A stretch of DNA of 64,000 bases from assembly GCA_033439295.1 (NCBI GenBank), contig JAVTLE010000016.1, forward strand, positions 2,232,001 through 2,296,000, read 5' to 3'. The stretch comes from Deuterostichococcus epilithicus. Lineage: Eukaryota > Chlorophyta > Trebouxiophyceae > Prasiolales > Stichococcaceae. The notes beneath the pieces are model-generated. The model had not been told where the DNA came from. It worked only from the letters and a program-made list of their open reading frames with translations, and did not search any database. Below, piece after piece: positions 14,201 through 57,522 of the stretch. Position 1 is the stretch's first letter. Every line of letters starts with the position of its first letter. The position numbers were made by a program, and so were the translations under genes.

Positions 14201-14504
14201 GGCCGGTGGAAGGTGCTGCGGCCGCCGCCGGGCTGGCATTGCTGCCATCGGCGGCCGGCAGCGGCGCTGTATGGCCGCCGACGCTGTGCGCAAACGGCAG
14301 CCATGGTCTGGCACCGGCTACCGCGCTGGAAGGGTTGCAGGCGTGCTCTCGAGTGCCCGCAGCAGGCGGCTGCTCTTCGTGCTGCCGTGGTGCGCCACTG
14401 CTGACCTCGGCACCGCGTGCAGCGCCTTCGCCTGCCGCGATGCCACCGACCGCAGCAGCGTTCAAGGCCGGCTGCTCGTTTGCGGGGCAAGATGCTGTCG
14501 TCAT
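11292..14504 (-). CDS. Large disordered nuclear-type protein, unknown function
   Basis: Two exons (14504-13716 and 13409-11292) encode 968 aa. The intron is GTGTG to GCAG and phase 0. The start is the first ATG (TTASCPANEQ follows). Exon 1 is Ala/Gly/Ser-rich and ends in an acidic stretch and a basic patch, SPRKKRRRKPQRWCE, a plausible nuclear localisation signal. Exon 2 opens with AGPSDATKAFLSPDRPRE, then SPAKRQSLKLSASGCRDIRA. The rest is low complexity, with Asp/Ser acidic patches (LSSSDDEGDEG, ILSSHDDSDLDITG) that resemble SUMO-interacting motifs, and Gln runs near the C-terminus. The motif spanning the intron is shared with the gene at 1198, its inverted paralogue. I do not recognise the family. 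A chromatin or transcription role is inference from composition and neighbours. Confidence 0.72.
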
Positions 14505-31650: not shown

Positions 31651-34600
31651 GAGCTGAAGCCCAGAGTATGAGTAGCTCTTGTAACTGCCAACATTCAGCG
31701 GTTTTGTAGTAGGCAGCCGACTTGGCCTTGTCGGGATGACACGTTCCTGGGCATTGGGAGCAGCAACACGTGAACGGTTCTCCTCGCAACGAGCCGCAAC
31801 ACGCGCGGCCCAAACACTTCTGCACGAACGCCTCCTGCACTGACCTGCTTGCGGGTGGTTCCCAGGCGCCAGCGCGCGCGCATATGCCTCCGACACTGCG
31901 GCCTCCACTGCCGAAGGCGCTGCGCCGCCGGCCGGCACGTCCAGCCCCGCCGCCAGCAGCTGCCTCGCTGCCCGCTGCAGCGCGTCGTGCGTGTCGATGC
32001 CAGCCGGCGCCGCCGCCGTGGCGAGCGCTGCGAACAGCGCCGGCAGTGCCGCCAGGGCCCCCTGTAGCCAATCATCGGCACACATCCGTTCAGCAGCAGC
32101 AGTCAAAAAGTCAGCTGGTCCTAGAATCCATTGAGTCCGACATGCCAGCACTTTATTCCTGCAACAGCTTGACTGTTGGTCCTCCCGCCTCAGAACCTGG
32201 CTTTGTGAGGCCGCCCCCGCGCCTCAAGCGTTCAATGCACTTTAGCGGTGCAGTGCTCGGCCACAGCTCGTGCAAAGCAGGTGTTCGCCATACGGACCTG
32301 CACCGTCTGCCGGGCGTGGCCAATGTCGTTCAGTGCGCGCTCCCAGGGGGGACAAGCCCCCGGCTGACCCTCCGCCGCCGCACGGGCCGCTGCAGCCGCC
32401 GCACTCTGCAGCGCCATGACGGAGCCGGCGGCCGACTCCGCCGCCCGTGCAGCGAGCTGCAGCAGCAGCGGCGCTGCTGGTCCTGCAAACGGGCATGTGG
32501 AAGAGTTGAATGTACTATCGAGCGTCCATGCGCGCCAGCTGTTGTTGACGTCCGATCTGTTCTGACTGTGGTCATCTGCAAAGATCCATTCCAACAGATG
32601 GGACGCCACGCATGGTTCATGGAAAGGCAGGCGCCCGTGCATGGCTGTTGCCAGTTGTGCCTGGACCCCAAACACCTGCTGCAGCCTCCAATGCCTGCAG
32701 CAAACGGAGCCTGCACCCTTCACAGCACGGCACCTCGGGCGCCGGGGTCCACGAGGACGGAACGAGTGGCCGGCACCACTTCGGCCAGGACGGCGGCGGC
32801 GTTCACGGCCCAGTTCAGGCGCCGCCGCTGCGGTACCTTCTGCTGCTGTGCCGCCAGCGACCCCATCACCTGCAGTCAGTGACTTGCTGTAGGCCCTGGA
32901 TGCACACTCTCGTCAGGGTAGGCTCCGGAAGCCTGCTGCTGATGGGCGCAGGCGGGTGCTTTCACAAGGCCGTATTAGCATCATTGCACAGCCATGTCCT
33001 GGAACGCCCGGAGGCTACCTCGTCCAGGCCCAGCAGGATGTCGGGGAGGGCAGCCCGCCAGTGTGGCGCCGCCGCCAGCGCCGCCAGGGCATGGCCCACG
33101 AGCTGCGGCTGGTGCGCTGCCGAGGTGTCGTCCTACGCGAATCACAGATCCCGACGTTACACGTGTGCGGGACGAGGTCAGGTGGCTATATGTGCGGATG
33201 GAACCTCTCCCTGCATCGACGACGAGCCGCACCGCCTCCCTCACAGTATACGGAGTATACCAACACCATTAGATTGCTGTTCAGGGCCGCTGGCGGTGTT
33301 GCTGCAAAGACGCCTTTCACATGCGCATCATGATGGCCCCAGCACACCAGAAGCGGCAAATGTCCCTCTGTGGCAGGTGTTGGCTGCTGCGAAAATGGCT
33401 CCGCCCACCTCCCATGTGTCGCTGGCGGCCGCCCACGTTCGCCAGCCCATGGCGTCAAAGGCGAGGCAGCCTGGCAGCACCGCATTGAGCCGCGCCAGCT
33501 GCGGCCGCAGCGCAGGCTCGAGCGACGCCCGCAGCCAGGCGCGCACCACTGAGGCGACGGCGTCTGGCGTCATCGCCGCACTGCTGCCGGCCGCCTGGGT
33601 GTGCAGCAAGCAGTCCGTAGTTTGTAGCTCCACAGCCCTTTACATCCCGCACCGCTTTCACCTTGTCTCCAGGTGTTTTTTTGGTTGTGTTTTGAACACA
33701 CCATGATGGGTCTCTGCAGCAGCAGTTCCCAAACGGCAACACAAAGCACAATTGTCATCAGCTGCTATCGGCCCGAGAAGACATGGGATCGCGCACCCTG
33801 AGGGCGCTTGCGGTGAAGTGCAGGTACAGTCTGCGCTGCGCGTCCGTTGCGGCGCTCCAGAGGTCGGCCGGCGTATGTGGCCGCGCCGCCCGGCGCTCCA
33901 GGGTGGCCCATGAGTGCACGCCTGCCGCCACAAGCAGCCCAGAGGCCAGCGCCAGGGTGTTGACCTGCGGTTTCATCGAGCGAATGGCATGGCCGCAGGC
34001 GCAGACGCGTCTCTGCATCTCGTCTCGAGAGCAAGGCAGCTTCCCTTTCAGTGGACGAGACTGAGCGGTGATGGGCAGTAGGCATTAGGCGGTGAGCAGG
34101 CATACGCCAGGCCCACCAAAGTGCGGCGCCGGCTGCTGCCTCACCCTGAGGTCGACGTTCACGTCCTGGACGCGGCACCCGCGCAGCGCGCCGCCGTCGT
34201 CGCCGACGCCGCTGAAGGCGGCAGCAAAGGCGGTGCGCCGGCCCGGCGCTGCCGCCGGCGCGGCGGGCGCCGCCGGCGGCGCCCATGTGGGGAAGGTGAC
34301 GGCCACCAGCGACTCCAGGGCCACCAGGGCGCCGCCGGTCTGCACGAAGGCAACGAGTCGCTCCCGCACCTGGCGCCGGACCTGCGCGACCGCCTCCGGC
34401 ACCTGCACAGGTTTGGGTTTAGGGTTTAGGGTCAGCGACCGTCAAGCCTCCCATCAGGCTGCCGGGCTGCCCTGGCGCATCGTTCATGGTCCCAGACGAT
34501 GCCCTGAGCTACGGCGCCATGTCGGGTCTCGTTCCGTAGGCCTGAAGGCAGTGGTAAGCAGGCGTGCATGCAGCATCGTGCCTGCTGCGTCGCTGTGGCG

Positions 34601-37600
34601 ACCTCCATGGCAGCATGCAGCATGCTGAGCGCCCTCGTGCGGATAGGCGTGGGCACCGCCAGCTCCGAGTCCTGAAACGCAACACGAATCCGAATGACCT
34701 ACAGGTGTTTGATTTCACTGCTTGCAGGGTCGATGCCGGCAGACATGGGTGAAAGAGCGGCCTCCAGGCACAGTGAGGCGAGGCGTAGGCGCACATGCTG
34801 GCCAGCCATGTACCGAGCATGTCCAGCTGCGTGCCAGGCTGCGGCGTCAGTCCTGGCATGTAGTGACACGAATGTCGTGCTGGCCAGTGCACGAGCCGAC
34901 AGCTGGGCAGCTCTGCAGCCGGCAGCCTTGCGCTGTGTGAAGTGTCAGCAAGATGCTCCATTGAATGCCATATGCCAATGCAGCAACACATGAGTCTAAG
35001 ATTGTCACGGACCAGCAGCTGCAGCAGGGGCGGCCCCAGGATCTCGGCGCAACCCGGCGCCAATGCCACAATCGCGGCCTCCGCCTCCAGCAGCACTCCA
35101 CGCACCAGCAGCGCATTGCCCTGCACCATCAATCAGGACTTATAGGGGGCTTACTGGATGTCACACAGATGCCGACGCCTCACCAGTGGCCTCCACATCC
35201 GGCAGATGTCCCGCACCTGCAGCATTGCCCTGCGCCGGCATCCAGGGTCTCAGGGCTGAGGGTTTATCAATGTTGCCGCGAAAAGGAGCGCAGAGAGGGG
35301 TGCTGTGGCAGTGGAGGTCCTGGTCGCACAGGTGCTCATGGTGTTGCAGGCGTGAAGAACAAGGATTTAGGGAGTGCACTAGAAACCTGTGTTCTAGGAA
35401 AGGACGGGTTGATTCCTACCTCCAGGACGCAGTTGATGTCTTCCTCAGAGCAGAGGCCCTGCAGCGGCCCAATGGATTGCTCCTGCAGACCAAAGCCCGA
35501 CACTCCAGGGTCGTTGGCCAGTGTGAGGAAGCTTCTGATGACGCTGCAGATGCTGGATCTGGGTTGTTGCGGATTCAAGCTGCGGCAGGCCCACGTGAGC
35601 CGAGCATGAATGCAAGGGACATGTCTCAGCACGTCCCACAAGCGGGAGGCGTCTGGAGGCAGCATCGCACCCCAAGCGGGCGCCCTGCTTGCTTGCGCTC
35701 GAATTCGCGCCGGTGCACCGTGTCACGCTCAGCGACCAGCTGCGCTATGCGCTGCGCCAACTGCAAACCAATGTTGCATCTCGGTCTGAGTCGCGGTTTG
35801 AAATCACGGTTGTTTGGACCACGCGCAGGATAACCAGGCTCAACAGCGCCGCAGATCAAACGTGCACGGGAAGGGCAGGCCCCAACAGCGTGTCATCGGT
35901 GGCGTCAGCCGCGCGCCGCATGTCAAGCCACAAGCACAGTGGCGAGCCGAAGGGGCGATGCGCGCCGAGCACACAGCCCAACTCGTCCTGCAGACAGTCA
36001 AGAACCTCCAGAGATGTCGCACACAGTCAACAATGCTGCGCTGCACCTCGCGGGCAACGGAGGCGGCGTCCGCGGGGAGGCCCCGCCGCCGCAGCGCCGC
36101 CAGCAGCCCCATGGTATGCAGCACCACGGAGCTGCGGGCCTGCGGGTCTGACCGCTCGAAGTCCAGCAGCGGCTCCTGCTCCCGACAAAAGACTGTATCT
36201 GGGATGGTCGCCAACACTGTGACGAATGTTCAACTGCAGGCGGAGCCTTGTCACGTCATGCACCACCACGTTCCTCCGCTGCACAGGCGAGATTGCTCGC
36301 CCAAGCGTGCAAGTGCCTAATGCAGCCGCACTGGGAACGCCGCACAGGTACAACAGTCAAGGCCGTGACATCACACAGGATCAACACATGCCGATGAACA
36401 CTGTCTGCACATGATGGCGGCGCGCCTTGAGTAACACGAACTTGCAGACGTCCCACTCCAGCTGCTCCGGCGGCAACAGCTCCCCGGCCGCCACGAAGAA
36501 CGCCAGCGCCGCCCGCAGGTCCCCGTGCGTCGCCAGCGGCCGCCGCAGGTCCGCCAGGTCTGCGCCGGCAGGTTCGGGGTTGAATAGTCGTTGAAGGAGA
36601 TATTAAAAGATACATTCAGCATCTGCAGGCAACTCACACCTCCGATGGAAACGAGCCTGTTCCTGGAGTGATGGCCAGGGGATGCGGGCTACAGCTGGCC
36701 TTGTAACCAACACCGGGACCAGGGGCCTGAACTTGGATCAGATCCAAGGTCGACTGCCTTTGTTGTTTTTGTCTCTTGCCAAATAGCGGCGGGCTACCTG
36801 GGCGGCTGCCGAGGCGGCTGATGGGGACGGCCTCGGGGACCTCTGCCCCGATGAAGCGCTTGGCGCTGCGCACGCACGCCACCGCCGCGCGCAGCAGCTG
36901 CCCCTGCGTCTCCGCGTCGCCGGCGGCGGCGCGCGACCGCTGCAGCAGGTCCTGCATTGCGGCCGCAAGCCGCGGGAAGCCCCAGGCGGGGGTACTGGCC
37001 GCCTGCTGAGGCTGCTGCAGCGCCTACACGACATTGCGCACTCGCACAAGACTGGGGGATGCATGACTGTTTTTGGAAATTTGCGACAGCAGCAGCTTTG
37101 CCATGCACAGGTGTGTCTGCGATGCGAGCCAGGAGGCACTGCAGATGGAGCCTTTGCTGGATGCGCAGCGTTGATGGGCCAGGACCATGCAGATGCCGCT
37201 TTGGTCGGAGCGCCGGCACAAGGCAGCAAAATTCCCCACCTGAGTCTGGGGCTGCGTCTGCTGCAGCCTGTCTGGGGGCGCGACGTTCTCCTGTTGCTGC
37301 GGCGGAGGACGCACGGCCGGCCGGGGCGCTGCCTCGGTCTGGCGGCTGTCGCCGCGTGGCGAGTCGACAGTAGGCTGCGCTGTGTCGCCACCTGCCGGCA
37401 CTGCGTCGGCCGTCGGACCACCATCGAAGGTGGCATGCAACTGGTGGTGCGGCAGCGCCGGGCCGCCCTGCCGGCTCCGTGCCTGGCCAGCCCTGTATTC
37501 CGGCACGACTCCCTGAAGAGCTGTGCCGATCCTCGCATTTCCGTTGAACTTGCTATACCTTTCCAGAAGCGTGAGATGATGAGCACTGCGGCATGATGTT

Positions 37601-40600
37601 GACCATGCAATGCTCAAGCGACATTTGGCGGAAGATGGATTTCTGCGGCCCCTCCGTCTGGCCATCCCAACAGGACAGCTCACCTGGGCATGTCGGGCCC
37701 TGCTGCTGTTCGGCTGTGGGCAACCTGCTTGTGCTGGCGTGGGAAGCCTGGAGGTGCCCCATGTACGCCGCCGCCTGCAGATCATGGCAGTTTCTGGCAG
37801 GAGTTGGGGACACCGCTTGGGAATAAGCCTTGTCCTCGCAGACGCACGACAGGCATGGACAACAGCTTGCAACTGCAATGGCATGCGTCATGCAGAGATC
37901 TCGTGGCACGATGATGTCGAGCAGACCTGAGAACTGCGGCAGCCCCTGGTGCGGCCCCTCAGTCCGCCGCTGCTCATGGGCTGCGCCTTCAGGCGGCAGG
38001 GGTGTCGCAGCTGCGGAGGTCATGCCTGGGTGCCCTGCAGTCACCACGTGCCACTGTCGACCGGGAGTTGGAAGCTCGCGGGGCGCCTCTTGGAGATGGA
38101 ACCTCGGCGATGTGGGCAGGTGCGTGCAGATGTGGATGCAGGCCGGCAAGCGGCTGATGCAGCATAGAACTATATGCTTGTTGTCATCTTCACTGCTGGC
38201 GACACAGGACAGAGTGGAGGCATTGCATCTCCTAGTACGAGACCAGTTTGTGTTGCTACGCGCCGTTGGGCATTGCAGAGACGGAAGGTCACCATCATCG
38301 TGTCGAGACCACATGGCGCTGCCCGCGTCGCCGTCATCGTGCGGCTCGAAGTGGCGGCCGCCGCTGTAGCCGTCTGGAGACGCGGCCGCTGGCGCTGCGA
38401 TGTCCCCCTGCCGGGCGATGAACTCGGCTGGCGACGCAGTATGCTCAGCGCCCGCCTGCTGCTGCCGGGGCGCCTCCCGCCCTGCCGGCGCGGCAGGAGC
38501 ACCGAAGCCGCTGCTGGCGCTGCCATCGACACCGTGTGCGGTGCTGGCAGCAGGGTCAACGAGGCCGCGCGATTCCAGGTATATCTGCCGCAACGTGCGG
38601 CGCCTGCGCTGGCCGCCGGGCCGCGATGCCTGTGGCGCCGCGAACCCGTCTGCGCCCTGCCACGACGCAGATCCGCCGCCGCCAGCTGTCACCGCCCACG
38701 GCGTGTGCTGAGACCTCGCGGCCGCACTGGAGCCTGACGCTCCGAGCGGCGCGCCGTGCGGCTGGTGGCCGGACGGCTGCGCCCCAGAGGAAGCCGCTGG
38801 TAGCGCCGCACCGAGGCCTGCGCATGAGCAAAGCTGACCCCATCAACTTGAAGGGGTCACTCCTGCTGGTTGTCTGGGATGGTCCAGAATCACCAAGCAG
38901 CACGATATTGGTTCCAGCTGCTTCATCACAGAAAAGCAACTGCCACCTGTGAGCGCCTCAGCAATGGTGCAATGATGCAGACTAAGGATGCATGCAACGA
39001 ATTCTCGGCACCTGGCAGCAGCACATCGGCCTCCTCCTGCTCTGCACCGCCGAGGGAGGAGCCAAGGCCGGAGAAGCCGAGGCCGCTGCCCAGCTGGCCG
39101 CTGGCCGCCGCCAGCGCCGGCAGGACCGCCGCAAACTCCGCCATCATCGCCGCCTCCTGCGCCTGCACCTTGCCCACCCTGCAGTGCATCAGGTTGTCAA
39201 TCAGACGGCGAGTCTGCGCGCTGCCAGCCTCCCTGCATGCTGCAACAGCCAGCAGGGCACCCCCGCCTTCCCTCGCTCTGCACGCAGGATCGATGGGGAG
39301 CGCGTTTACGACGCTTAATTACACTGCAGCATCGCGCCGGCACAGTCATACTTCAACCTGTAACTCTGCTCGTGCAAGACGGCTACCTGGGCCTGGCCGC
39401 GCCGCCGCCGTCGGCGTGCCGCGCGCGCTTGGCGGCGGAGTCCCCCCACCCTGCAGCGTCGCCGTCCTGCCCGGGCCCGCGCTTGCGGCTGCCGTACACA
39501 GCCTCGCCGGCCTCGCGCATGGGCATCGGCGCCGCGTTCTCGCTCAGGTGCGTCAGGATGAGGTAGTGCGCCGCCTGCAGTTTCATGGCATTGTCAGGCC
39601 GAGAACAGGCAGCACAGCTTACCTTTTAGGTGGCGGTAGATGGGGGGGGACGCTGCAGAACATTGGGCTGCCTCCCCGGCCGAGTCATACCACCTTGGGC
39701 TGATGCACCTGGTCCGCCGCTGCAAACATACTTACAGCAAACAGAAGTCCTGAGCAGGCCTGCTGTGCACACCCAATGCTGTCGCAGAAGCTGTACTCTA
39801 TCCCCTGACGCTGACCCTACACCCTGACGTACCGACGGGAAGCCGGGCTGTTTCGCCTCGTCCGACAGCTGGCCGCCGGCGAGCAAGCCGCGCTCTGCAA
39901 CACGTGCTGCAGGCTGGCTGCCCGAGCCTCGGCCCCGCTGCAGAGGCCATGGAGGCGACCAATGCTGTCGCAGAAGCTGTACTCTACCCCCTGACGCTGA
40001 CTCCCTGACACTACTTTAATTTCTGACGCACCGACTGGAAGCCGAGCTGCTTGGCTTCGTTGAACAGCTGGCCGCTGGCCAGCAGGCCGCGCGCCGCCCG
40101 CTGGCAGGTGACGCCAGAGCAGTTGCAGATGTCGCGGCAGCAGGGGCAGCGCCAGTCCGGGTTGCGAAGCGCGTCCCGGATGTCCTCTCCCATGCGCGCC
40201 GCCAGGCAGCCGCCGCACCTGCAGGTTGACATGCACCGGCGCCGTTGATTCCTTTGACCCTGTTGTTCACCGCCGCTGGCGTACTGCTGGCTTGCTGTGT
40301 GCTTCGACAGCTGCAGCTTCTCGATCGCACACACAAGAACTATAGTTTGCAGTGCTGCCGAGTGCATGGAGTGGAGACTGGTTTGGAGATGCATCAGGTG
40401 CGCGTGCGCCGCTCTCAAATGGTGTGAAAGGTGGCAGCAGCCGCACCAGATGCCCCGCCGCAGGCCCGCCATCTGCCGCCTGCTGCCGGAGTGCTCGCAT
40501 GCACAGTGCGTCTTCTGGTCGATGGTTTTCTGCCTGCGCAAGAACCAAAGGACGGTCTGCAGCATACGATGACAGGGAGAACGGGGTGGCCGGATACTTC

Positions 40601-41185
40601 AGCAGACTGGTTGGTTGGGTCACCAAGAGTTTTGTCGCACCTGCAGAAGTGGCAGGTGGTGCAGGCTTTGCAGCCCGGCCCATGCTCCTTGCTGCACAGT
40701 GGCGCCTTTGGAGGGATGCTGAAGTTGTGGCGGGCCTGAAACTCCTGCAACGCCCGCCAATGATCGAGAGTGTAGTACTCCCTGCACGGTCGGGCATCGA
40801 CGACACTGCTGATAAACTTGTTGAGGCCGAGTTGCTATTTTCGGATTTCCACCCAAAGAGCCTTCCGTCCAGCCAACAGCAGCTCAACGCCTGCGACGCT
40901 CTACTACCGCCCTGACGACAGCTTGTGCTTGACAAGTCTTTCGCAGCTCCGTTGGGGCAAGCCGTGCGATCCCTGAGCATGTGCCATGGCCCAGGGACCT
41001 GCATGCAGACCCCGGCGTTGCTGTGGCTCTGTGCAGCAGTCCCACCTGTGGGTGCCCTGCGCATGCCGCAGCGCATGCAGGTGAGGCCCGATGCGGTTGC
41101 TGTATGCAGCGATGTCCGGCATGCTCTCCGGCACCGTGACAACGGCTTCTGCATCGTCACGCTCCGACACACGCCGCCGCGGCAT
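27419..41185 (-). CDS. Giant protein with N-terminal CDCA7-type zf-4CXXC_R1 zinc finger
   Basis: I trace 33 exons, about 2,025 aa. The first 13 are 41185-41046, 40781-40641, 40533-40447, 40218-40032, 39574-39387, 39178-39012, 38817-38293, 38088-37927, 37520-37240, 37023-36798, 36559-36411, 36175-36047 and 35760-35671. Later ones continue to 27631-27419. Phase holds at nearly every junction. Residues 80-200 match the CDCA7 finger: CKACTTCHFCRQKTIDQKTH, CGGCLAARMGEDIRDALRNP, RCPCCRDICNCS, then the AHYLILTHL helix. In animals and plants CDCA7 proteins work with HELLS/DDM1 remodellers in heterochromatin and DNA methylation. Residues 200-600 are disordered, and 600-1,700 are Ala-rich helices (ARM/HEAT-like, inference). 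Exons 30-31 may form an OB-like fold; the last exon is UBA-like (LLGALCDMGFPRNAATA). It could be two genes, but no in-frame stop or new start was found at the join. Confidence 0.75.
34415..34432. repeat. Interstitial telomeric repeat next to a splice acceptor
   Basis: GGGTTTAGGGTTTAGGGT lies in the intron between giant-gene exons 16 and 17. On the coding strand it reads CCCTAAACCCTAAACCC and ends about 12 bases before the acceptor at 34403-34404, in the polypyrimidine-tract position. Confidence 0.9.
39770..40088. repeat. 188-bp-spaced tandem duplication of the end of a zinc-finger exon
   Basis: Copies at about 39770-39896 and 39958-40088 share CCAATGCTGTCGCAGAAGCT and the coding end of giant-gene exon 4. 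The parental copy reads LLASGQLFNEAKQLGFQS; the intronic copy reads LLAGGQLSDEAKQPGFPS. The duplicate sits inside intron 4 as an exon remnant. Confidence 0.8.
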
Positions 41186-42350
41186 GGCTGGGACCGGCCA
41201 GAGGGGCGCCGATCAGGCGCCCGAATCTGCTGTCACCGCCGCATCGTGCGACCGCGCAAGCCGCGCTGACGCGCTCGCCTTCACAGACGCCTGCAGGCCT
41301 GATGCTATGGCTCAGTCTGGCGGGGTGGCTAGCATGGCTGCCAGGCTTTGCTGCTGCCGCCTTCGTGGCCTGAGGGCCGCGGGGTTTGGCCAGCGGGAGT
41401 TCCCGAATTGCTCTCAGACGGCCGGCTGTGAGAAGTGAGTGTTTATCGTGATTCTCGTAGCAACATGGCGCGCGAGCATGCATGGCGATGGTGACTACGG
41501 CAACGCGGCCCAGTCGCTGCTCCAGTAGATTCAAACTTGCCGCACAGCTCGCCTGAGCCACACGCCGGGAACAACACTATGATCCACCTAACATATTCTA
41601 AGAGACCGAACACCGAGCGCAAGAGCAAGACTCACCGACTTGAAGACGCGGAGCAGACAAGCTGCAGAAGGCGATGCAGCCCAAGCTCAGCGGGCTGTCA
41701 CGGCCATGAGCTGATGCAAGGTCTGCACATGGCTTCGATCCCAGTACTTGGCTGTCTTACAGTCGGTGGACGCGACGATCAGAAGGCACTGCTTCTGGAA
41801 GCCTGAGGAGCTTCACGAATCATATTCTGTCGAATCAATCGGGCGATACAGCGACGCAGCAATTGAGCAGAGGAGCAGAAAAACAGCGGTAAAGGCATGC
41901 CAATAACGATTGCAGCCTGCACATTGGGTTGAACTTCTGGCTGAGCACGTGACCTGCCAGCACGCACAGCACGGCGAGCTCTGCATGTGTTGTGCTGTAG
42001 ACTGCATGTTGCAGCAAACCCAGATGACAGCAGTATGAAAGTTACTTGCAGATTGTCAACAGCATCGTCTGCGTCAGCTTGAAACGCTCAAGAGTTGCAT
42101 TCGAAACTTGAAGGAGCTGTCCGTAACTCTTTGTCTTTTCACAGCCTCTCGCGGCGAAGGAACGCTAAAAACAGCTCGAACCGTCCATACTGAATTTTGA
42201 TCCGATGAAACCGCGCCGGAAAACTTTGCAAGGCTGACAGTTCAAGGCACGTCAACAACCTCACACGGTCACAGCCATGTATGACGAGACCTCAGAGGTG
42301 TGCATTTGTCGAACTTTGAAGACTTTTGACCTGCAGGGTACTCGTACGCA
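41186..42350. promoter_or_regulatory. Divergent promoter region, giant gene and LRR-B3 gene
   Basis: This 1,165 bp lies between two head-to-head ATGs (41185 on -, 42351 on +). No coding feature is supported. It must carry both promoters; individual sites cannot be assigned. Confidence 0.5.
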
Positions 42351-45300
42351 ATGGACGTGTCGACGCCGCAGCGCACGGCACCTGGCCAGGCGCCGCTGCC
42401 ACTCGGCGGCTCACCGCTGGCAGATAACAGCCCTGGCCAGCTCGATGCGCTGGCAGCGCTGATGGGGTCGGAGCCAACCAATGACGACGCCGCTGTGACG
42501 CCGGGCCGACCGCCTCCGGCAGGCATTGCCGCCTATAGTGGGATGATCAGCATGCCGCGGCCAGAGGCAGCGGCACCTGCCGCGGCGCCGCAGCCCGCCT
42601 GCGAGAGCCCAGATGCCGCTGCTGAGCATTGCAACGCACCTGGTGATGCCGCGCCGCAGGCAGATGCGGGCATGCCACAACGTGGCCAATCGCAGCAGCC
42701 GCAGCCGCAGCAGCAGCTGCCACAGCAAGCGTCGGCGGAGGGCGGCAGCGTGCCAGCAGCAACACGCGCTGTGGCAGGCGCACCTACCGGTGCTGCTGCC
42801 TCCCACGAGGCTGTTAGCGTGAGCTTCGACCAGGAGTCTGGCGGCGGTGACGTGGCGCCGCCAAACAGGGTGCTGGAGGCTCTGGCGGAGCTGTGCGAGC
42901 AGCGGGACATGGACTTTGGAGCGCTGCCGCCGGCGGTGCGAGACTGCCTGGCGGCGCTGCCCGACAGCCTCATCGCGGCGCCCGGCGAAGGTGCAGGTGA
43001 GAGGCAAGAGCAGCAGACGTGCACAAACTGGTCGTACTGGAACATGCGGCTACTCGTCTGGAACATGCGGCTACATGTAGCCAGCGGAACTCTGTTTAGA
43101 AGGTGCCTGAATGTAATGGCACCTCCGCACACGTCTACAATCATGACACTGGATTCGACGAGGCTGTGGGCACAGGGGCCGGGAGTGCATGCCTGGACTT
43201 CAGGGTGCGCCCAGGCCAGCAGGGCCTGACCAAGCACCAGCTCCCGGCGCTCTTCGATTGCCTGTTCAGGTGTGCCCGTCACGCCAGAGCTACCCCAAAC
43301 CCTTGAATTGCACATTGACTCTGGGCTTCGTATGTGACCAGCACGCTTCTCGATCTGAAAAGCATTGTCCTGCGGTGCGCTGTCTGTCACCCGGGTCATT
43401 TCTTGCTGCGATGCAGGCAGGGTTATGTCATCCGGGCTCACCTGCTCGACCTGTCAGGCTCACAGGTGAGGGTGGTCCTTTGTGGATCACTCAGCTTCGA
43501 CCTGGTGCGACCAGACAGCGCTGGTTCGCACCGTCCACAGTCAGCCGTGCATCTCTTCACGTGCCCCTAATGACAAGTGCGCTGTTGGCGCAGCTGCTGA
43601 CGGCGGGCTTGCACGATCTGCGCTGGGCGGTGGACGGGCTGGCGCGCGAGAACGCCGACAACACGTGCCTGAGGCACCTGGTGCTATCTGGCTGCGGCAT
43701 CGATGTCGGTGTGCGCTTCCGTCCCCAACTCGCGCATCTTGGGCCATGGTTGCAGCTGTGTGCACTTGTACGCCAAAGATTGAATGATGCTTATCTGGTC
43801 CGAAGGTCTTGCAGTCAAAGCAGGCAAGGTTTTCACACGTTGTGCAGCAGGGACCCCTCACTTCGTGTGTTTCAAATATGCAGAGACACTGTCGGAGACG
43901 TCGTGGGGAGTGGCGCTAATGCACCAGCTGCTCACGCTCGACCTGAGCCACAACGCCGCCCTCGGCGCCGCGCAGTCCCAAGGTGGGCACAGCTGCACCT
44001 CCTCTGGCACTTCCAATGATGGCGGGGCGGGACAGGCACATCATTGCACCTCGATCGCACCCGCAGGCCTGCATTTGCGAGTGCTTTTCTTCGTCGTTTC
44101 GAACATGCGATCTCTCCTGTCATCTTAAAAAGACTTATTTCGCAATACAGAGGAATCTTGGATCTTGGACCCCTACCCGAGCGGCGCCATCGCGCGCCTG
44201 CTGGGCAGCAGCCCGCTGACCATGTTGTGCCTGCAGCACGCAGGCACGTCTCTGCGTAACGGAATCATCTGGCAGCATGTCAATCACGCATCCTTTGCAC
44301 AAAATGGTCTCAAGCTGCCTCCATCTCGCTGGACATTACGAGGAAGTCGTATCATGAGAGCCTCCCCAGACGCTGCTGCCTGCACGACTCCGCGTTGTGG
44401 TTCCACCCCGCCACCTTCGCTTGAAACCCCGGACATGACCCGTCAGACTGCATTGTGATCATGATCTGACGCCTTTTCTCTGGAACCCAGGCATGGACCG
44501 CAGCAAGCTGGAGGCGCTGTGCGCCCGCGTCGCCGCGCCGGAGGCGTTCGCGCCGCTTGCGGTGCTGAAGCTAGGCCCCGTGGCAGACGGCGCCCTGGCG
44601 GCCGACTTCGTCAGCAGCCACCTGTTGCCCCTGCTGCAGGTGCGGGGGTTTGCAGACCGCTGCCACTGAGTGGAACTGCTCGGAGCAGGCACAAACGAGC
44701 ATTTGCAGCGTGCGCAATGTGGCCTGGCGAGTGCAGCGCTCCTCGTACACCGCCTATGTGCACAGCTTCCTGCTTGCAGGCATAACTTGCGCCTGTCCAT
44801 GCCTGGCTTTATACAGCGCACGCACGATTCGGTGCTCTGTCCCCGGCAGGCCAAGGCGAGTCTGGAGGTGCTGCACGTGTGGGGACTGGCCGCGGCCGCG
44901 CGCGATGCTCTGGTGGAGGGGTGGCGGGCGCTGCGTGGCGCGGAGCCCCATTTCGAGTATCTCGACGGCGGCCTGCGCTTTGCGACGCACAGGTGCCCGG
45001 CGGAGGGAACCGATCACCGTCAGTAGAGGCCACCATTCTCTGTCACGCCCATCGTCAGCCTGCCTCACACGCTGACATGGCAGACGGAAACAGCCCTCAG
45101 ATTCGGCTGTGAAGCAGCAGCGACCTCAGGGTTCAAAGAGTCCAGCACGCTGCTGCAACATCCAGTCTGCTGCGACTGCAGGGGCCTGTCTGAGGCGGAG
45201 CAGCTGCCGTATGAGCACTGCCTGCCGGCGCCGCGGCGCCCCTCCTCCCCGTCCTGCAGCTACTCAGGGCCGCAGGTGGGGTTCTGACCTGTGGACGAGG

Positions 45301-48300
45301 CTCCGTCCCCACCAGCTGCAGCAGCTGCATGCTGGCTGCAGCCGAATTGACTGCCGGCTTGCTCCGTTCGGTGGATGCAAGTGCAGGCCACATGGGGCCA
45401 CTGCGGTGCTGTTCTTCGTAGAGGCATCGGCGCTGGTCGATCTTTGACAACGTGTCCGAGGCTGCCGCTGCTCGTTGATGCAGGCCCAGCTCTCGGACAG
45501 CGACGACGAGGGGCAGGGTGGCGGCGGTGGCGGTGGCGGCGGCAGCGACCCCATTGTGGATGCCGCGGCGGCGGTGCTGCGCGGCAATGCGGAGCTGGCG
45601 GCGATGGAGCGGCGGCGGCAGAAGCGTGCGGCCGCGGCGCAGCAGGGTGGCGGCGGCGGCGGCAAGCGCCAGCGCCGGCTGATTGATGGCGCGTCCGCAG
45701 GCCACTCGCACGGGGCGGCGTGTGACCCCGTGCCGCAGCTGTTGCCCACTGCCCGCCCGCGTGACAGGTCAGCAATGCCACACCGACTGTTTGACATCGT
45801 CGAACTTGCACATTCAGACTAAGTACCCGCCCTTCCCGCCTCTGCCCCTGGAATGCCACGCCTAAGAGCCCCTTGATTTTGGCGTGTGTTGCCCTATGCG
45901 AACCGTTGCCCTGTGCGAAAATCATCACGAGTCTCGCCAAGTTCGATGCCCCTGCGCAGGCCGCATTCTAACATGGGAGATCGGGCAGAGCTGCCACGCT
46001 CGCCTCGTGCTGCCAGGCAATCGGCCTCCGCTGCCAGGCCGGCGACAAGCTCGTGGCCGGCAGTGGACGACAGTTGGCCGGCACGCTCTGACGACCGCAG
46101 CTGCAGCGGCGGCGGCATGCCTTTGGGCGGTTATGGTAGCGGCAGCTATGTCAGCGACGGCAATGGCAGCAGCGGCGATCACAGCGGGCGCAGCCCTGCC
46201 CGCGGCCGCCGAGGCAGCACGCTCGGAGCTCGGATGCGCCGCGGCCCCCGCCAGCGGTTTCGGGTAAGCCCGCTTGCGGGTTGCCTTTGCAGGCTTGCAC
46301 TTGCATGTCCGGAAGTCGCAGTCCAGAAGCAGCAGAGCAGCAGGCATAAGTTCTGTGCATCCACGAGCCAACCTTGCAGCATGCCTGTTCGTTCTGATCT
46401 GACGCTGGAGTTTCTCTGACTGCCAGCTGATCATCAGACCGGCATAAGGAGCGCCATCAACCATCGCCTCCCCAATGAAACAGCTTCTTACAGTTCATGC
46501 CTCCTTGTGTACCGCAGCCTCATGGCATCATGGGCACTGATACTTACGCCCCCAGCGACGAGCTGCGCAGCCCGCTGCCGCCCGGCGTGGACCCAGGGTA
46601 CAGTGACCAGGCGGTCGCGGCGGCCCTCGCCTCGGGCCTACAGCTATGCGAGCGCCTGCAGGGCGGCGGCCGGCCAGCGGCCTGCAAGGTGTGTGAAAGC
46701 GTTGACGGAATGCGTGCGCCATGCTGTGGCGACTGCAGCAGCGCCCGGTGGGCGCGGAACCTCTGCGATGATGAACATAGCCCTGAGTCCTTCGGGTGCC
46801 GGCAGGGGGCGACGGGGTGGCCAGGCATTGCCCTGCCCCCTTGGCAAGCCGTGGGGCCACGCACATTGCACGGCGGCGGACTCGAGCTTGTGGAGGAGGT
46901 GGCGTGTGGCGTGATTCGAACCTCCGAGAACAAGTTTTGTTGACTCGCAGGAGATGCGCAAGTCGCATGTCAGCGGCGGCTTCTGGTGTCAGGTCCCGCA
47001 GGGCCTTACAGCGCATCTGCCGGCCTGCGACTGCGACTTGCTCTTTCAGACGCCGGAGCGCCGCGTGCCGCCAGACAGTTTCCACTATGTCGTGCCCGAT
47101 GCCGGTGGCGGCGGCGGCACCGTCGGGGGTGTACCGGCGTGGCAGGTCGTGCTGCTGCAGCGCGACGAAGGCAGCGGCGGCGGCAGCGGCTTTTCTGGCG
47201 GCTGGCGCGGCTTCGCCATCGACCTGGTGGGCCTTCTGTGCCCTGTGACGGCCTGCCTCCCCTTCTGGCACAGCGACTTGCAGGGCTCGTCGCGTGTGCC
47301 CGCGCCACGCGGCGCTGTGTGTGGCAGGCCTGCCTCCGGCGCCACTCAACTGCCACAACTGCGCTGAGCAGTACTGCAGCCGACGGCCGTGCCTCAGAAG
47401 TGTGTGACTCAGGGTTCAGTCACTCAGGGTTTAGTCCTTGAAGTATTGACGGCTGCAGGACCTGAAGGTGGGCGACGTGGTGGTGTACGAGGTGCTCGCG
47501 CCGCAGCGCCTGCACGTCCACATTGTGCGCGCCGCCGACTTCGAGTACGGCGCCGCTGGCCCCGGCAGCCCCGGCCGGCAAGCTCGGCGCGCCGGCGGCC
47601 GGCGCGGCAGCGGCCGGCGCCTCGGCGGCGGCGCGGCCTGCGGCAGTGGCCGCGGTCGCGCCGGCGCGTCGCAGGAGCCTGCGCTGCGGCCGGCGGGTTT
47701 GCCGGAGGCTCTGTCGCCTCCGACGGCCCGCGAGGACATCGCCTGCAACGGCTCAGACAGCTCCCTGTCATGCAGTGAGCCCTCGCCCGACATGCGGCAT
47801 GAAATCTGAAGATGTCATTTCAACTGCGGCAAGGTCCTCGGTCGCTTGAACGGACAAACCCTGCAGTAGTTTTGCGGGGCGGCAGCAAGCACGTGTTCAC
47901 CTCACAACGGCAGGCACAGCTGCGTTCCTTTTGGGATTTCACGTTAGATTCGCTCTGCACACCGACACGGAAGCTTTCATTACAAATCATCGCAAATGAT
48001 CCATTGATCATTAGGGTCCGTAATCTTGCAACGATGCCGCCCGAAGTGATCTTGCCACTGGCGGCTCCCGCAGGTCAGAGCGCCTCCGACGCCGCCGCCG
48101 CCGCCGCTGTCACCAGCGACGAGGAGGTCGATCGCTTCCTGGCGCCAGACAGCCTGGACCCAGAGTTGCTGCGCTGCGGCGTCGGCGAGAGCCCGCCGCC
48201 GCCGCCAGCCGCCGCCGCAGCCGCCGCAGGCTGGGCAAGCCATGGGGAGCCAAGGGACGAGCTGCGAGACGAGGTGGCCGACCTGCAGGCCTGGGCCTTT

Positions 48301-50171
48301 GACAGGTGCGATCTCGAGCGAAGCGCATCCAGGTCGCAGAAAGGATGCAACGCTTAGGGCAATTATTGCGCAAATGCCGAACCCTCAAGCAGCCCCTCTG
48401 AGGCACTTCCTGAAAGGCAAGCGCTTGTTGCAGCCTGAGGCCCCTGTCTGCCTGGGCAGAAGGCATCCCGCCACCTGGTAATGCGAGGGCTGAGCAGGAA
48501 GCTGCCTGCAATCATGCCTTGCTACACCACTGCTGCGTGCACAGGCGGCGGGGAGAGCAGCCAGCTGGCGACTTCTTTCAGGAGGCTGCCGGCAAACGCA
48601 CGGCCAAGCAGCGCGCCTCCGAGCCTGCCAGGGCGCAAGCCCTTGCGGCACTCCAGGCCAAGCGCGGCCGCCGCAGCGGCGCTGGCGTCCCCGCGGCACA
48701 GGGCAGCCACATAGCCGAGCCGGCGGCCGCCGCAGCCGATGGTGTATCGTTGGGCGCGGGCGCTGCAGTTAGTGTGCGCGCAGCACTCGCGGAGCCAACA
48801 ACAGACTCGCTGGTCGATCCAGAGTCAGCAGGGCAGGGCGGGGATGTGTGCGGGAGGCAGCGGCGCAGCAGCAGCGGCGGTGCCGCAGTGGGAGCTGCGT
48901 CACTGGACATGGGCGGCCAGAACAGCGGCGGCGACGGCGATGACGGCATGGAAGGCGTCTGGCGGAGCCAGCCGCGGCAGCTGCGGGCGCTGCGCATCCT
49001 GGACAGCGACTCGGATGGCGACGAGACTGCAGCTGCGACAGTGGCTGCGGCGCCGGAGTCGGTTGCAGTGCAGGCAGCAGCAGCTGAGGCAGCGGCGTTG
49101 CATTCGGCTGGCGACCCCGCCAGCGAGGTGCGCACAAGTGCTCGGACGAAGCTGCGGCCCTTGGCCAGCCAGCTGCCGGCGCTTGCTGCAACACCCTCAG
49201 CCAGTTTTGGCGGCTCGCACAGTGCCCGGCCTGCTTCAGACACGGAGGACAGTGCGCCAAGCGCCCTGCCACAGCAGCAGCCAATGGGGCGGCGGCCTGC
49301 AGCCAAGCGACGGCGCGTCCTGTCTGACCGCAGCCTTGGCAGCGAGCCCGCTGCCGCGCTCTGCGACGAGCGCAAGTCCAATTTCATTGGACGGCCGGGC
49401 GGCGTCCAAACGCCGCCGAATGCAGTTGGACCGCCGCCGGCCATCGAGTTGGAGCCCCCTGGAGCAAAGCAGCTCGGCCAGCCGCCTGCGGCTCCTGCGG
49501 CGGCACGCGCGATGCCGGTGGCAAGCCTCCCCCAGGCGCCCAGCGTCGAGCGACAACCAGCGGGGGGCGCTGGTGCCCCTGGCCCAGCGTCGCAGGCGCT
49601 TGCACGGGCGACGCTGCTGCAGCAGCCGCTCACCGGCTCTGCTGCGCCCGCTGAGCGGCCAATGCCGGCGCCGATGGAGCCTGTCGGCACTATACTGGCA
49701 GACACACCTGCAGCAGCAGCTGCTGCCGACAGGCTGGTGGCCACTCACGGCGCAGGCGCCGCGGCGCCAGCGCCAGAGCCCAGGGCGCAGCCGGCGGTGG
49801 GCAGCACATCGCCGGTCGACCAGCCAGCGGGCGACGCGGTGGGCATGCCGACCCCGGCAGATGCTGCCTGGGCAGCTCCACCAGGCAGCTTGCCGACGGG
49901 CTCAGCGGGCCGCCCTCGCAGGGTGAGCGACCGCCAGTGCGCCGGCGCCAGCCGGACTTCAAATGAGCTGTCGTCAGCCGGTGGCGCTACGAGGCACAGT
50001 CCACCAGCCAAGCCTGGGCAGCTGCAGCCTGCAGCCCTGTCTGCCTCGATGGAACGCTCAGCAGGCGGCAGCCTGGGCTGCGACCTGCTGTGGTCCCCGG
50101 AGGCATGGGATAAGCACATGCAAGCGGCGCAACAAAGCAATGCGCTTCCGTTGAGACGCTCCAGGGGCTAG
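42351..50171 (+). CDS. Leucine-rich repeat plus B3 DNA-binding domain protein, 16 exons
   Basis: Exons: 42351-42996, 43176-43269, 43417-43465, 43594-43708, 43884-43982, 44151-44255, 44491-44639, 44850-44992, 45182-45275, 45484-45767, 46017-46263, 46518-46688, 46951-47226, 47459-47774, 48074-48305, 48545-50171. All junctions keep phase and give 1,548 aa. Residues 1-215 are disordered. About 255-466 hold ribonuclease-inhibitor-like LRRs (LRHLVLSGCGID, LLTLDLSHN, LTMLCLQHAG, LEVLHVWGL). An acidic/Gly segment follows, then a canonical B3 domain at about 733-855: RKSHVSGGFWCQVP, WQVVLL, GFSGGWRGFAID, LKVGDVVVYEVL, LHVHIVRA. B3 is a plant-lineage sequence-specific DNA-binding domain. The last 540 residues are disordered, with an NLS-like PAAKRRRVLSD and acidic ILDSDSDGDE. 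Likely a nuclear transcription or chromatin regulator. The LRR plus B3 combination is unusual. Confidence 0.88.
47409..47440. repeat. Degenerate telomere-like motifs in an LRR-B3 intron
   Basis: CTCAGGGTTCAG and CTCAGGGTTTAG lie in the intron splitting the B3 domain (47227-47458). The match to TTTAGGG is partial. Confidence 0.4.
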
Positions 50172-51101
50172 ACTGCCGAGGCACTGCAGCAATCAAATGG
50201 GCGCTGCCTCTGGTAACTGACACATCTGGCTGTTTATTTGGGTTACCCAACGGATGGCAGACACAGGCTCTGGATGGGACAGGATGGCTATGCAAAGCCG
50301 AGGTCCTGGGCAAATGATCATCAGATTCCTGTGCATGTCCAGGACACCCTTTCGATTTGTTGAACGAACCTCAACAATAAGGTGCACAGTCAGGACGTCG
50401 CCGCCACCGCCAGTTTTGGCCTCGTCAGGTGGCCGTGGCATTGTCAGCTCCTTGTGCTTCCCGTTTCTGGGCGACTGTGTCTTTGAGGGCTGATAAAACT
50501 GCCAGAAAAGGTTCAAGTACGCAGCAGGGGAAGAATGTAGGTACATGCACCAACAGGACAGCCCCCCGTCCATTGTGGTGGCGACTAGCGAGCTGCGAAG
50601 GTGTTGCAGCCAGCACTGGTACTTATTCGGAGTCTGTGCCATCACAGGCTGCAGCGACATTGCACAATCACAACACAGGGGGTGAAATGTGAGCTGCGTT
50701 TGGACCATTGAGGGCATGCTGTACAAAGTGATCGTCTCGGTTGCAGGGACAGACATATGTCTACCGCACAATCGGCAACGACTCGTATCCAATTGCTGAT
50801 GTTGAGAGAAACGAGTAGTCAGAAGCAGGCGCAGCCTGAACCAAGGGACCAGCGATGAACGTCTATTCCTGCCAGCATTGCGGCGTGGGCACGGCGGCAA
50901 CAGGGCCCCTCTCACGATGCCCATGTGAGCCTGTCGAGCCCCCTGTGCCGCACGCCCAGCCTGGCAGCTCAAAACTGATGTGCGCAAGCAGCCGCGGCTG
51001 CGTGCTGGCCGACGTTTGGCCGCGCCAGCCACTCCCAGCCGGCAGGCTTGCCAGCAGCATCGCAGAACCCATCTGTGGCGCTGCCGCTAGGACTGTATCG
51101 C
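50172..51101. other. Intergenic between convergent genes
   Basis: No supported gene is seen. It carries the 3' untranslated regions of the LRR-B3 gene (+) and the first ferredoxin gene (-). Confidence 0.6.
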
Positions 51102-52451
<1,350 letters not shown>

Positions 52452-53346: not shown

Positions 53347-54608
<1,262 letters not shown>

Positions 54609-54894: not shown

Positions 54895-57522
54895 ATGGCT
54901 CAGGCTATGATGATTTCGGCTTCTCCGGCCGCGGCCGCCGCCCGGTGCACCAAGGCCGCAGTCAGCCCTGTCGCTGCCGCGCCCCGCGTGCAGCTGCGGA
55001 GGTCTGCGCTGCAAGGGCAGTCGCTGCGATCTGCACCCGTGTGCCTGAGCCGCTCGAAGGTCAACACCCTCTGCAGGGTGAGGTCGCTGCTACCCTGTCC
55101 TGAATGATGGCATGCATGCGAGATGGCGTGCATCTAGCCGGCCGTCATGCCACGCATTGAAAGACACCTTTCGCATGCAGTGCGCTTGTAACACACATGC
55201 ATGCGTGTTCTGTGGGCGCCGAGCATCGGTGCTGCGAGGTTGGATCGTCTTGGTGCTTGCGCTGCCTGGTGATATATCCTGTGGCCCGTGGCAGTGGCCC
55301 ACCGTCCTAGCGCGTTTCGCACCGTCGTGATCTTCATCCGTTCAGCGCCATTGTGCGACCGATAGTGGGCTTGAGCGCAGGCTGGCGAGGGCATTGTCGG
55401 CGGCTCGCCATCGCCGCCGCTCGTGGGCAACATTGCGCCCGACTTCAGCGCGCAGGCCGTCTACGACCAGGAGTTCATTGACATCACGCTGTCCCAGTAC
55501 CGGGGGTGAGATATCTGTATCTCATGCTGCTTGCATCCAGCTGGCATGCAATGTTGACAAGTGACTATTGCGCCGCAGCCATTGCGTCCGGCTCCAGGCG
55601 CCATTGCTGACCTGCATGCTGTGGCCGCTGCAGGAAGTACGTCGTCATCTTCTTCTACCCGCTGGTAAGCACTGGCTCGCTCGCTCGCCTTCCTGATCAC
55701 CTGTGGATTCCTGCGCCTCTCCTGCCATCCTCCGTCTTGTGTTGGAAACGCATTGAAGCGGCACCTCGCTGTGGTCGCTTCATGCCAAATGCCTCGTCGC
55801 TACCCTGCAGGACTTCACATTCGTGTGCCCCACTGAGATCACAGCCTTCTCGGACCGCCATGCCGACTTTGCGGAGCTCAATTGCGAGGTAAGCGGAGGG
55901 CGGGTCTAGTAACCCTAACCTGTTGCCGCGCCAGGGCGTACCGCCGCGGCCCCTAAGCTTGCCACACGACGTCCTGTGATGGCTCAGATGCCCGCCCGCT
56001 CAATACTGGGCCAACTGAAGTGCTGGGCCCCAGCTCAACTGGATTTGTCGAACTCAAGAACGTCTTGCAAGTGTATGAAGCTTAGTGCCCTCAGATGAAG
56101 CTGGTCAGCGCAGGTTCTGGGAATCTCAGTGGACTCGCAGTTCTCCCACCTGGCGTGGATCCAGACAGGTGAGGAACCCTGCGCCACTCTTTCATCTGCG
56201 GGCAGGGGCAGATTCTGACAGCCACGGGCGTGCCTTGCGCAAGGGGCGATGAGGGCACAAGCACGCAGCGAACCGTGCATTCGCCTTGTTGTCAACCTGT
56301 CAAGGCAAGCAGCTCGGGCAGTCTTCCTTCCCGAGCACACGGCCCTCAGCGAGGCCATGCGCACAACTGTCTCTGCTTCCAAGTCGTCCTTAGCCCGCTC
56401 TGCGCTGCCAGAATCCGACAGAGATACTAAAACTAGAGTTCCAATCACAACTCTGCGGGCGGGCTGCCCACGGGTACATTCCTTGGCTGTGCTGGCCTCA
56501 GCCCCGCGGCGGCGCCTCCGTCACACTGCATGCAGAGCCTCCTGCCGTGCTGCCGCGCAGAGCGCAAGGAGGGCGGCGTGGGCGACCTGAACTACCCGCT
56601 GGTGTCGGACCTGAAGCGCGAGATCAGCCAGAAGTACGGCGTGCTCAGCGGCGACGGCGTCGCGCTGCGCGGCCTCTTCCTCGTCGACCGTGAGGCGCGC
56701 CGTTTGCCGCTTGAGTCCCAGAGGAAGACAACTCTTTGAGGGTCTTGGTGGGGAAGACATTCCCTGGCGACATGCCTAGGAGGATGTTCTCTCAGGACGC
56801 CTCAGCTGTTGTTGCTGAAGATTGTCACTTCTCCTGGGGTCTCACGCATGGCTATGCTCCTAGCAAGGAGCGGGCGTGTGTCGCCTCTCGCCGGCTGCAA
56901 CCCTAGATTGCGCAGCCTGTGCAGCAGACGGCCTGCATATAAACTCTTTGTGCCCGCGTCTGTGCAGGGTGTCATCCAGCACTCGACCATCAACAACCTG
57001 GCGTTTGGCCGCAACATCGATGAGACGCTGCGGGTGCTGCAGGCACTGAAGTATGTCCAGGTGCGCTGCAGCAGCTGCTTAGGCAGGCCGACGATTCGAT
57101 CTCGTCCTTCCCCCTTTCCTCCTGATCAGTCGCCGAGGCCGACGGAGAGGGTAGGCGAAAGAGGGTAGGCGAAAGCCTGCGCACCCTGCTGCAAACATGC
57201 AAATGGTCGGGCTGTTGGCAGATCCAGCAATGATGGGCATCGTGTGCGTGTTGCACCAGGAGAATCCTGACGAGGTCTGCCCGGCGGGCTGGAAGCCTGG
57301 GGAGGTGACCATGAAGCCCGACCCCAAGGGCAAGATGGACTACTTCGTAAGTCTTGTCTATCGCCACACGCCTTGCTATTTGAGCCGATGCCAAGCTGCC
57401 CTACTGCAGCAATATGTGAGTCATATTCGCACCGAAGTCTTGCGCAAGGGCACCCTTGTTGCCAGCCTCCACAAATTTGTTTTCTCAGACGCAATCTTGA
57501 CCCTATGCAGGCGGCACTGTAA
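54895..57522 (+). CDS. Plastid typical 2-Cys peroxiredoxin
   Basis: Nine exons (54895-55077, 55381-55505, 55634-55664, 55811-55888, 56114-56168, 56561-56694, 56968-57060, 57260-57346, 57511-57522) give 265 aa with all phases consistent. An Ala/Ser-rich transit peptide of about 60 residues precedes [19 protein letters not shown]. The peroxidatic Cys lies in [17 protein letters not shown] and the resolving Cys in [15 protein letters not shown]. It also has [30 protein letters not shown] and the C-terminal YF helix linked to overoxidation sensitivity. It reduces H2O2 and alkyl peroxides using thioredoxin or NTRC electrons, in the stroma. The closest known relative is plant BAS1/PRXA. Intron 6 appears to use a GC donor (GAG then GCGCGC), needed to keep phase. 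The final exon is only 12 nt (AAL and stop). Confidence 0.95.

What the first reader, a model, noticed from the sequence alone, without database searches (positions are those of the whole stretch)
42351..50171. Leucine-rich repeats fused to a B3 DNA-binding domain
All 16 exons keep codon phase, so the LRR block (about residues 255-466) and a canonical B3 domain (about 733-855) belong to one 1,548-aa protein. B3 proteins normally carry B3 alone or with AP2, ARF, zf-CW or PHD-like domains. I know of no described LRR-B3 architecture. An LRR sensor or scaffold on a sequence-specific DNA-binding domain could be a new type of algal transcription regulator.
Basis: partly seen in the sequence, partly recalled or inferred. 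Interest (0 to 1): 0.72.

Follow-up and report, generated by a model that had tools for sequence, protein, structure and literature searches.

The report
Probable algal LRR-B3 fusion protein gene
One gene, apparently algal, probably encodes a large protein joining a leucine-rich protein-binding module to a divergent plant-type DNA-binding domain; similar pairings are known in plant immune receptors, so it is an unusual variant rather than a new kind of protein, and it still needs transcript proof.

Summary
The exon chain holds: 16 exons at 42351-50171 (+) stay in frame for 1,563 aa. A gene finder trained without this locus returns 12 of 16 exons exactly. The B3 is genuine but divergent, not canonical: Pfam E 1.7e-5, 25.1 bits, cut-off 30.1; a C12 paralogue shares it, the preceding exon and two intron positions. 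The LRR block is plausible but weak (LRR_6 E 0.00098, below cut-off).

That one gene joins them is likely, not shown. The probability of no gene break at 44900-46900 is 0.94-0.99 if at least 300 bp must separate genes, but 0.21-0.74 without that rule and lower under very dense gene priors. The paralogue has no detectable LRR.

The novelty claim is too strong. [quoted passage not shown] Here LRR-B3 comes without NB-ARC, in an apparent alga. New variant of a known kind, moderate interest.

The parts
42351..42996 (+). exon 1: start codon, low-complexity N-terminus, then residues 174-210 before the LRR
   Evidence: same ends in the gene finder
43176..43269 (+). exon 2, start uncertain (gene finder prefers 43215)
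43417..43465 (+). exon 3: first LRR unit begins
43594..43708 (+). exon 4: LRR units 1-2 (LRHLVLSGCGI)
   Evidence: LRR_6 best stretch
43884..43982 (+). exon 5: LRR unit 3 (LLTLDLSHN)
44151..44243 (+). exon 6: LRR units 3-4; followed by a probable GC-AG intron
44491..44639 (+). exon 7: LRR units 4-5
44850..44992 (+). exon 8: LRR unit 6 and end of the LRR block
45182..45275 (+). exon 9: linker; an unspliced reading would stop at 45285-45287
   Evidence: coding posterior 0.993
45484..45767 (+). exon 10: low-complexity linker with basic clusters RRRQKR and KRQRR (possible nuclear localisation signal)
   Evidence: (coding posterior 0.965)
45960..46263 (+). exon 11: low-complexity linker; weakest link (coding posterior 0.595; gene finder starts it at 46107)
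46518..46688 (+). exon 12: VDPGY...LC.RL...AACK extension, shared with the C12 paralogue; ATG at 46530 is the rival B3 start
46951..47226 (+). exon 13: first three quarters of the B3 domain
47459..47774 (+). exon 14: end of the B3 domain, then low complexity; 3' end uncertain (gene finder 47696)
48074..48305 (+). exon 15: low-complexity region
48545..50171 (+). exon 16: low-complexity tail with basic clusters (KRGRR, KRRR); the gene finder splits it and may end at 49966

Best explanation
One gene encodes a large (about 1,340-1,560 aa) protein, mostly low-complexity and probably nuclear. An N-terminal leucine-rich repeat solenoid of the ribonuclease-inhibitor type holds a protein partner, and a divergent B3 domain holds DNA or chromatin, so the protein brings the LRR's partner to B3-bound sites: a DNA-tethered adaptor. 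Shown: the in-frame exon chain, B3 homology with a paralogue, coding signal in linker exons 9, 10 and 12 (weaker in 11). Inferred: one transcript across the linker, the LRR fold, nuclear location, DNA binding and a partner. It probably arose when a B3 gene of the C12 type was joined to an upstream LRR gene.
For: 16 exons in frame; 12 of 16 exact in a gene finder trained without the locus. Probability of no break at 44900-46900: 0.94-0.99 over three gene-start priors once at least 300 bp stop-to-start is required; 11 of 14 adjacent same-strand predictions in the material held are at least 678 bp apart. Splice sites of introns 8-12 at or above the 97th percentile of background. B3: Pfam E 1.7e-5; C12 paralogue with 49% identity over the B3 and introns at the same two places, after AACK and after GF.ID; a two-paralogue profile matches one PDB sequence at E <= 10, the VRN1 B3, E 0.0051. 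LRR: LRR_6 E 0.00098; a profile of its own six repeat cores matches two PDB sequences at E <= 10, a GALA protein and a 'Leucine Rich Repeat protein' (E 0.086 and 0.8); shuffle P 0.011 for the motif chain. Basic clusters in linker and tail.
Against: Without a minimum gap, the same probability is 0.74, 0.45 and 0.21 for gene-start priors of 1/2500, 1/1000 and 1/500, and 0.045 and 0.002 for 1/200 and 1/50. The 300 bp figure was my choice; 3 of 14 adjacent same-strand predictions are closer (9, 164 and 184 bp). For no break anywhere in 42400-50100 the default model gives only 0.37, mainly because the tail is uncertain. The gene finder may over-join: its 37-exon prediction at 27419-41185 joins a zf-4CXXC_R1 stretch to a 610-aa piece without a Pfam match. 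The paralogue stands without an LRR. Both domains are below Pfam cut-offs. No transcript; no relative with both domains.
Confidence: 0.55

Rival explanations
1. Two neighbouring same-strand genes: an LRR protein ending near exon 10 (for example stop at 45822) and a B3 protein starting in exon 11 or at ATG 46530 in exon 12, like the stand-alone C12 paralogue.
For: With a gene-start prior of 1/500 or denser and no minimum gap, the best parse splits here. ATG 46530 has the same start-context percentile as ATG 42351 (28th). The C12 gene as predicted starts one exon before the equivalent exon. 3 of 14 adjacent same-strand predictions have gaps under 300 bp. In a published survey, reads spanned the join in only 8 of 20 expressed predicted NLR fusions in B. 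rapa, though in 20 of 25 in wheat (PMC4759884 section 7).
Against: Without a minimum gap the best split parse needs an extra 45-codon gene between the two; with a 300 bp minimum the split drops to 0.01-0.06. Exons 9 and 10 and the 3' half of exon 11 have coding signal, and introns 9-11 have good splice sites.
Confidence: 0.3
2. The fusion is real but the B3 part is a decoy or chromatin-contact module rather than a sequence-specific reader, in the manner of integrated domains of NLRs or of VRN1. (A sub-case of the best explanation's gene model, so the odds overlap.)
For: The only PDB match of the two-paralogue profile is VRN1, called sequence-nonspecific in one passage of PMC6599366 and specific in another. 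The paralogue's predicted gene carries a Chromo-like stretch (E 0.0019, below cut-off). Integrated B3 domains occur in NLRs.
Against: No NB-ARC match in the held genome (0 matches at E <= 0.001, searched exon by exon), so no NLR frame for a decoy was found. DNA contacts were not tested.
Confidence: 0.12
3. The LRR-like block is not an LRR fold but another leucine-rich stretch, so there is no LRR-B3 protein.
For: Pfam LRR scores are below cut-off; the block was not among 5 places of the genome-wide LRR_6 search; phmmer against the PDB gives a LacI-type regulator first (E 0.052).
Against: The other three of the four PDB hits are NLRP1 LRR chains, E 0.10-0.12; the repeat profile retrieves two sequences, both LRR by name as far as I recall for GALA; motif spacing of 28-40 residues.
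Confidence: 0.1

Closest known systems
NB-LRR receptors with an integrated B3 domain (NLR-IDs; PMC4759884, PMC8832786)
   Same: LRR and B3 in one predicted protein; listed in eight angiosperm species
   Different: Those carry NB-ARC; none here, and none found in the held genome. Two other NLR papers' main texts do not mention B3 domains under the terms searched (PMC12787737; PMC7145615)
[quoted passage not shown]
   Same: B3 and LRR in one expressed gene, read as a resistance protein with DNA-binding domains
   Different: Also has NB-ARC and WRKY; B3 is N-terminal of the LRR
VRN1-type B3 proteins
   Same: VRN1 B3 is the only PDB sequence matched by the two-paralogue B3 profile
   Different: VRN1-type proteins have one or two B3 domains (PMC6599366, passages); no LRR in the passages seen
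Single B3 genes of Chlamydomonas and Volvox (PMC2688026, passages)
   Same: Green-algal B3 proteins
   Different: Those are ABI3/HSI-like and one per genome; this genome shows several B3 or B3-like places

Membership tests
B3 superfamily (PF02362) | Pfam B3 match at or above the curated cut-off of 30.1 bits | tested here: not met
   21.9, 25.1 and 24.5 bits for three cuts of this B3; C12 paralogue 23.2; not listed by the genome-wide search. Another B3 gene, at C14:2198 kb, does reach it (33.1 and 33.7 bits). I therefore call this one B3-like.
B3 superfamily (PF02362) | Homology to a solved B3 domain | tested here: met
   Two-paralogue profile: one PDB hit, VRN1 B3, E 0.0051, over 49 of 124 positions. 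Weak alone: the single sequence gave VRN1 at E 0.26, behind NrdI at 0.18
B3 superfamily (PF02362) | Open-barrel fold with DNA-contacting arms (recalled) | tested here: inconclusive
   AlphaFold2 on exon 13 alone, no alignment: mean pLDDT 41.7, not used
Leucine-rich repeat protein, ribonuclease-inhibitor type | Pfam LRR match over cut-off | tested here: not met
   LRR_6 19.4 bits (cut-off 23.4), LRR_1 15.5 (cut-off 20.6)
Leucine-rich repeat protein, ribonuclease-inhibitor type | Several tandem LxxLxL units of about 24-35 residues (recalled) | tested here: inconclusive
   Five strict L..L.[LV] motifs, spacing 28, 40, 31, 32; shuffle P 0.041 for number, 0.011 for chain; repeat profile retrieves two PDB sequences, E 0.086 and 0.8
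NLR with integrated domain | NB-ARC domain with LRR | tested here: not met
   No NB-ARC among the Pfam matches of the gene or in the held genome (0 matches at E <= 0.001)

The most novel reading that the evidence does not exclude
A class of green-algal regulators in which an LRR sensor sits directly on a B3 DNA- or chromatin-binding domain without NB-ARC, part of a wider set of algal B3 proteins joined to other modules (B3 with a Chromo-like stretch on C12, a B3-like stretch with SET in this window).
Probability: 0.2. Interest if true: 0.6.

Novelty: new variant of a known kind. Interest (0 to 1): 0.36.

Why it matters
If confirmed, it would be an LRR-B3 protein outside flowering-plant immune receptors and without a nucleotide-binding switch. 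It would show that an alga can join B3, reported as a single gene each in Chlamydomonas and Volvox (PMC2688026, passages), to protein-interaction and perhaps chromatin modules. Otherwise it is a modest addition.

Tried and rejected
AlphaFold2 on exon 13 alone gave pLDDT 41.7 and was not taken to a fold search. Spliced proteins were not sent to the structure tool, because its stated rule asks for proteins read letter for letter from the DNA. Relatives: none of 8 pattern matches (LRR, viral contigs), 3 (B3, viral contigs) and 50 (B3, genome contigs) held; the LRR was not searched in genome contigs. These collections hold viral or prokaryotic sequence, so absence says little. Polyadenylation motif TGTAA (recalled from green algae): none from 43113 to 52190, so it marks neither a break nor the gene end. 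A first MAFFT alignment of the LRR units was out of register and was replaced by one of 24-residue cores. Of the further weak matches, C4 and C13 were looked at and are chance; five weaker ones (E 0.03-0.17) were not. F-box-like start before the LRR: an idea by eye, no Pfam match at E <= 10. A literature search to name the organism found nothing; 'trebouxiophyte' and 'alga' are not verified here. Listings for B3, LRR and algal terms and the compound names showed no algal LRR-B3 among the titles, abstract starts and passages seen; this does not prove that none is in print.
Full report
Gene model. Joining GT-AG introns (one GC-AG) on the + strand gives 16 exons from ATG 42351 to TAG 50171, all phases compatible, 1,563 aa. 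To test this without my own eye I wrote a small gene-structure model (3-periodic coding model, splice and start matrices). It was trained on predictions in the rest of the window and ten stretches of about 10 kb of the same genome; predictions touching 42300-50300 were left out, though the background composition used the whole window (40 genes and 285 introns in the last round). In its training material it returned proteins that by eye are histone H2A, nucleoside diphosphate kinase, ferredoxin and 2-Cys peroxiredoxin. At this locus it returned one gene, 42351-49966, with 12 of my 16 exons identical at both ends; exons 2, 11, 14 and 16 differ.

Are LRR and B3 in one gene? Coding posteriors of the linking exons are 0.993 (exon 9), 0.965 (exon 10), 0.595 (exon 11) and 0.949 (exon 12). 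Splice sites of introns 8-12 lie at or above the 97th percentile of the GT/GC or AG sites on the window's + strand; the weakest sites are elsewhere (intron 1 acceptor 81st, intron 14 donor 90th). The probability that no intergenic stretch falls in 44900-46900 depends on assumptions. For gene-start priors 1/2500, 1/1000 and 1/500 it is 0.74, 0.45, 0.21 with no minimum gap; 0.79, 0.53, 0.28 with 150 bp; 0.99, 0.97, 0.94 with 300 bp; and 0.997, 0.994, 0.987 with 500 bp. Priors of 1/200 and 1/50 without a gap rule give 0.045 and 0.002. For no break anywhere in 42400-50100 the default gives 0.37, since the tail is uncertain. The gap rule is my choice; among 14 adjacent same-strand predictions in the material held, 11 are at least 678 bp apart and 3 are closer than 300 bp (9, 164, 184). 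The gene finder may itself over-join (27419-41185, 37 exons). I put the fusion at about 0.65-0.7. As a yardstick, reads spanned the join in 8 of 20 expressed predicted NLR fusions in B. rapa and in 20 of 25 in wheat (PMC4759884, section 7 read).

B3. The domain spans residues 748-870 across exons 13 and 14. Pfam gives E 1.7e-4 (21.9 bits) within 450 aa, 1.7e-5 (25.1) with exon 12, and 2.7e-5 (24.5) with inserts cut, all below the 30.1 cut-off. If exon 13 is read on into the intron (a cut that also had shortened inserts), E is 0.07. The genome-wide PF02362 search did not list this exon or the C12 one. The C12 paralogue (L020) aligns at 49% identity over the B3 and shares exon 12's VDPGY...LC.RL...AACK stretch. 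Introns follow AACK and split the B3 after GF.ID in both genes. The profile of the two finds one sequence in the PDB at E <= 10, the B3 domain of VRN1, E 0.0051; the single sequence found VRN1 only at E 0.26, behind an unrelated protein. I call it a divergent B3-like domain.

LRR. Residues about 250-462 read as six units. LRR_6 E is 0.0037 in the 494-aa half and 0.00098 in the block alone, both below cut-off. The genome-wide LRR_6 search listed 5 places, none of them here. Of four weak PDB hits the first is a LacI-type regulator (E 0.052) and three are NLRP1 LRR chains (E 0.10-0.12). A profile of its own repeat cores finds two PDB sequences at E <= 10, a GALA protein and a 'Leucine Rich Repeat protein'. 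The shuffle test gives P 0.041 for motif number and 0.011 for the chain. No other place in the held genome matches the block at E <= 1; the 7 matches are the locus itself.

Setting. The held genome has 46.8 Mb in 21 contigs; the window is C14:2232001-2296000. The Pfam B3 search lists three places: C14:2198 kb and C5 over the cut-off, C19 below it and with a stop inside; the protein search adds C12. The C12 gene as predicted carries a Chromo-like stretch (E 0.0019, below cut-off) after its B3. No LRR was seen by eye in the 3.8 kb of L020 upstream, where a histone H2A-like gene starts 0.9 kb away on the other strand. No NB-ARC was found at E <= 0.001.

What is known. [quoted passage not shown] Two other NLR papers gave no B3 passage under the terms searched (PMC12787737; PMC7145615). 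Chlamydomonas and Volvox have one B3 gene each (PMC2688026, passages). Searches for an algal LRR-B3 showed none in what I saw.

Mechanism. The most likely reading is a nuclear, DNA- or chromatin-bound adaptor: B3 anchors, LRR holds a partner. Basic clusters in exons 10 and 16 fit nuclear location. None of these activities is tested.

Noticed in passing
window 2704-14504 (-): Predicted long low-complexity protein with a C-terminal SET domain (Pfam E 2.6e-16) and a faint B3-like stretch (E 0.18, below cut-off); two further stretches looked B3-like by eye but gave no Pfam B3 match.
   Followed up: partly
L020 3528-6937 (G000:C12): B3 paralogue whose predicted gene also carries a Chromo-like stretch (E 0.0019, below cut-off): a possible B3-chromodomain protein.
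   Followed up: partly
L001 / G000:C14:2198104-2198355 (-): Another B3 domain, over the Pfam cut-off (33.1 and 33.7 bits), 34 kb upstream of the window on the same contig.
   Followed up: partly
window 15179-19532 and 27140-31580: Repeat within the window: three blastn pieces of 76-89% identity, the middle one inverted; by eye the 15-19 kb copy looks like a partial copy of the gene at 27 kb and beyond.
   Followed up: partly
window about 39-41.2 kb (-): zf-4CXXC_R1 zinc finger (Pfam E 5.5e-24), upstream of the finding on the other strand.
   Followed up: no
window 51102-52451 and 53347-54339 (-): Two ferredoxin-like genes in tandem (named by eye), followed by a peroxiredoxin-like gene at 54895-57522 (+).
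   Followed up: no
window 44244-44490: Probable GC-AG intron (CAG|GCACGT) in the LRR block.
   Followed up: no
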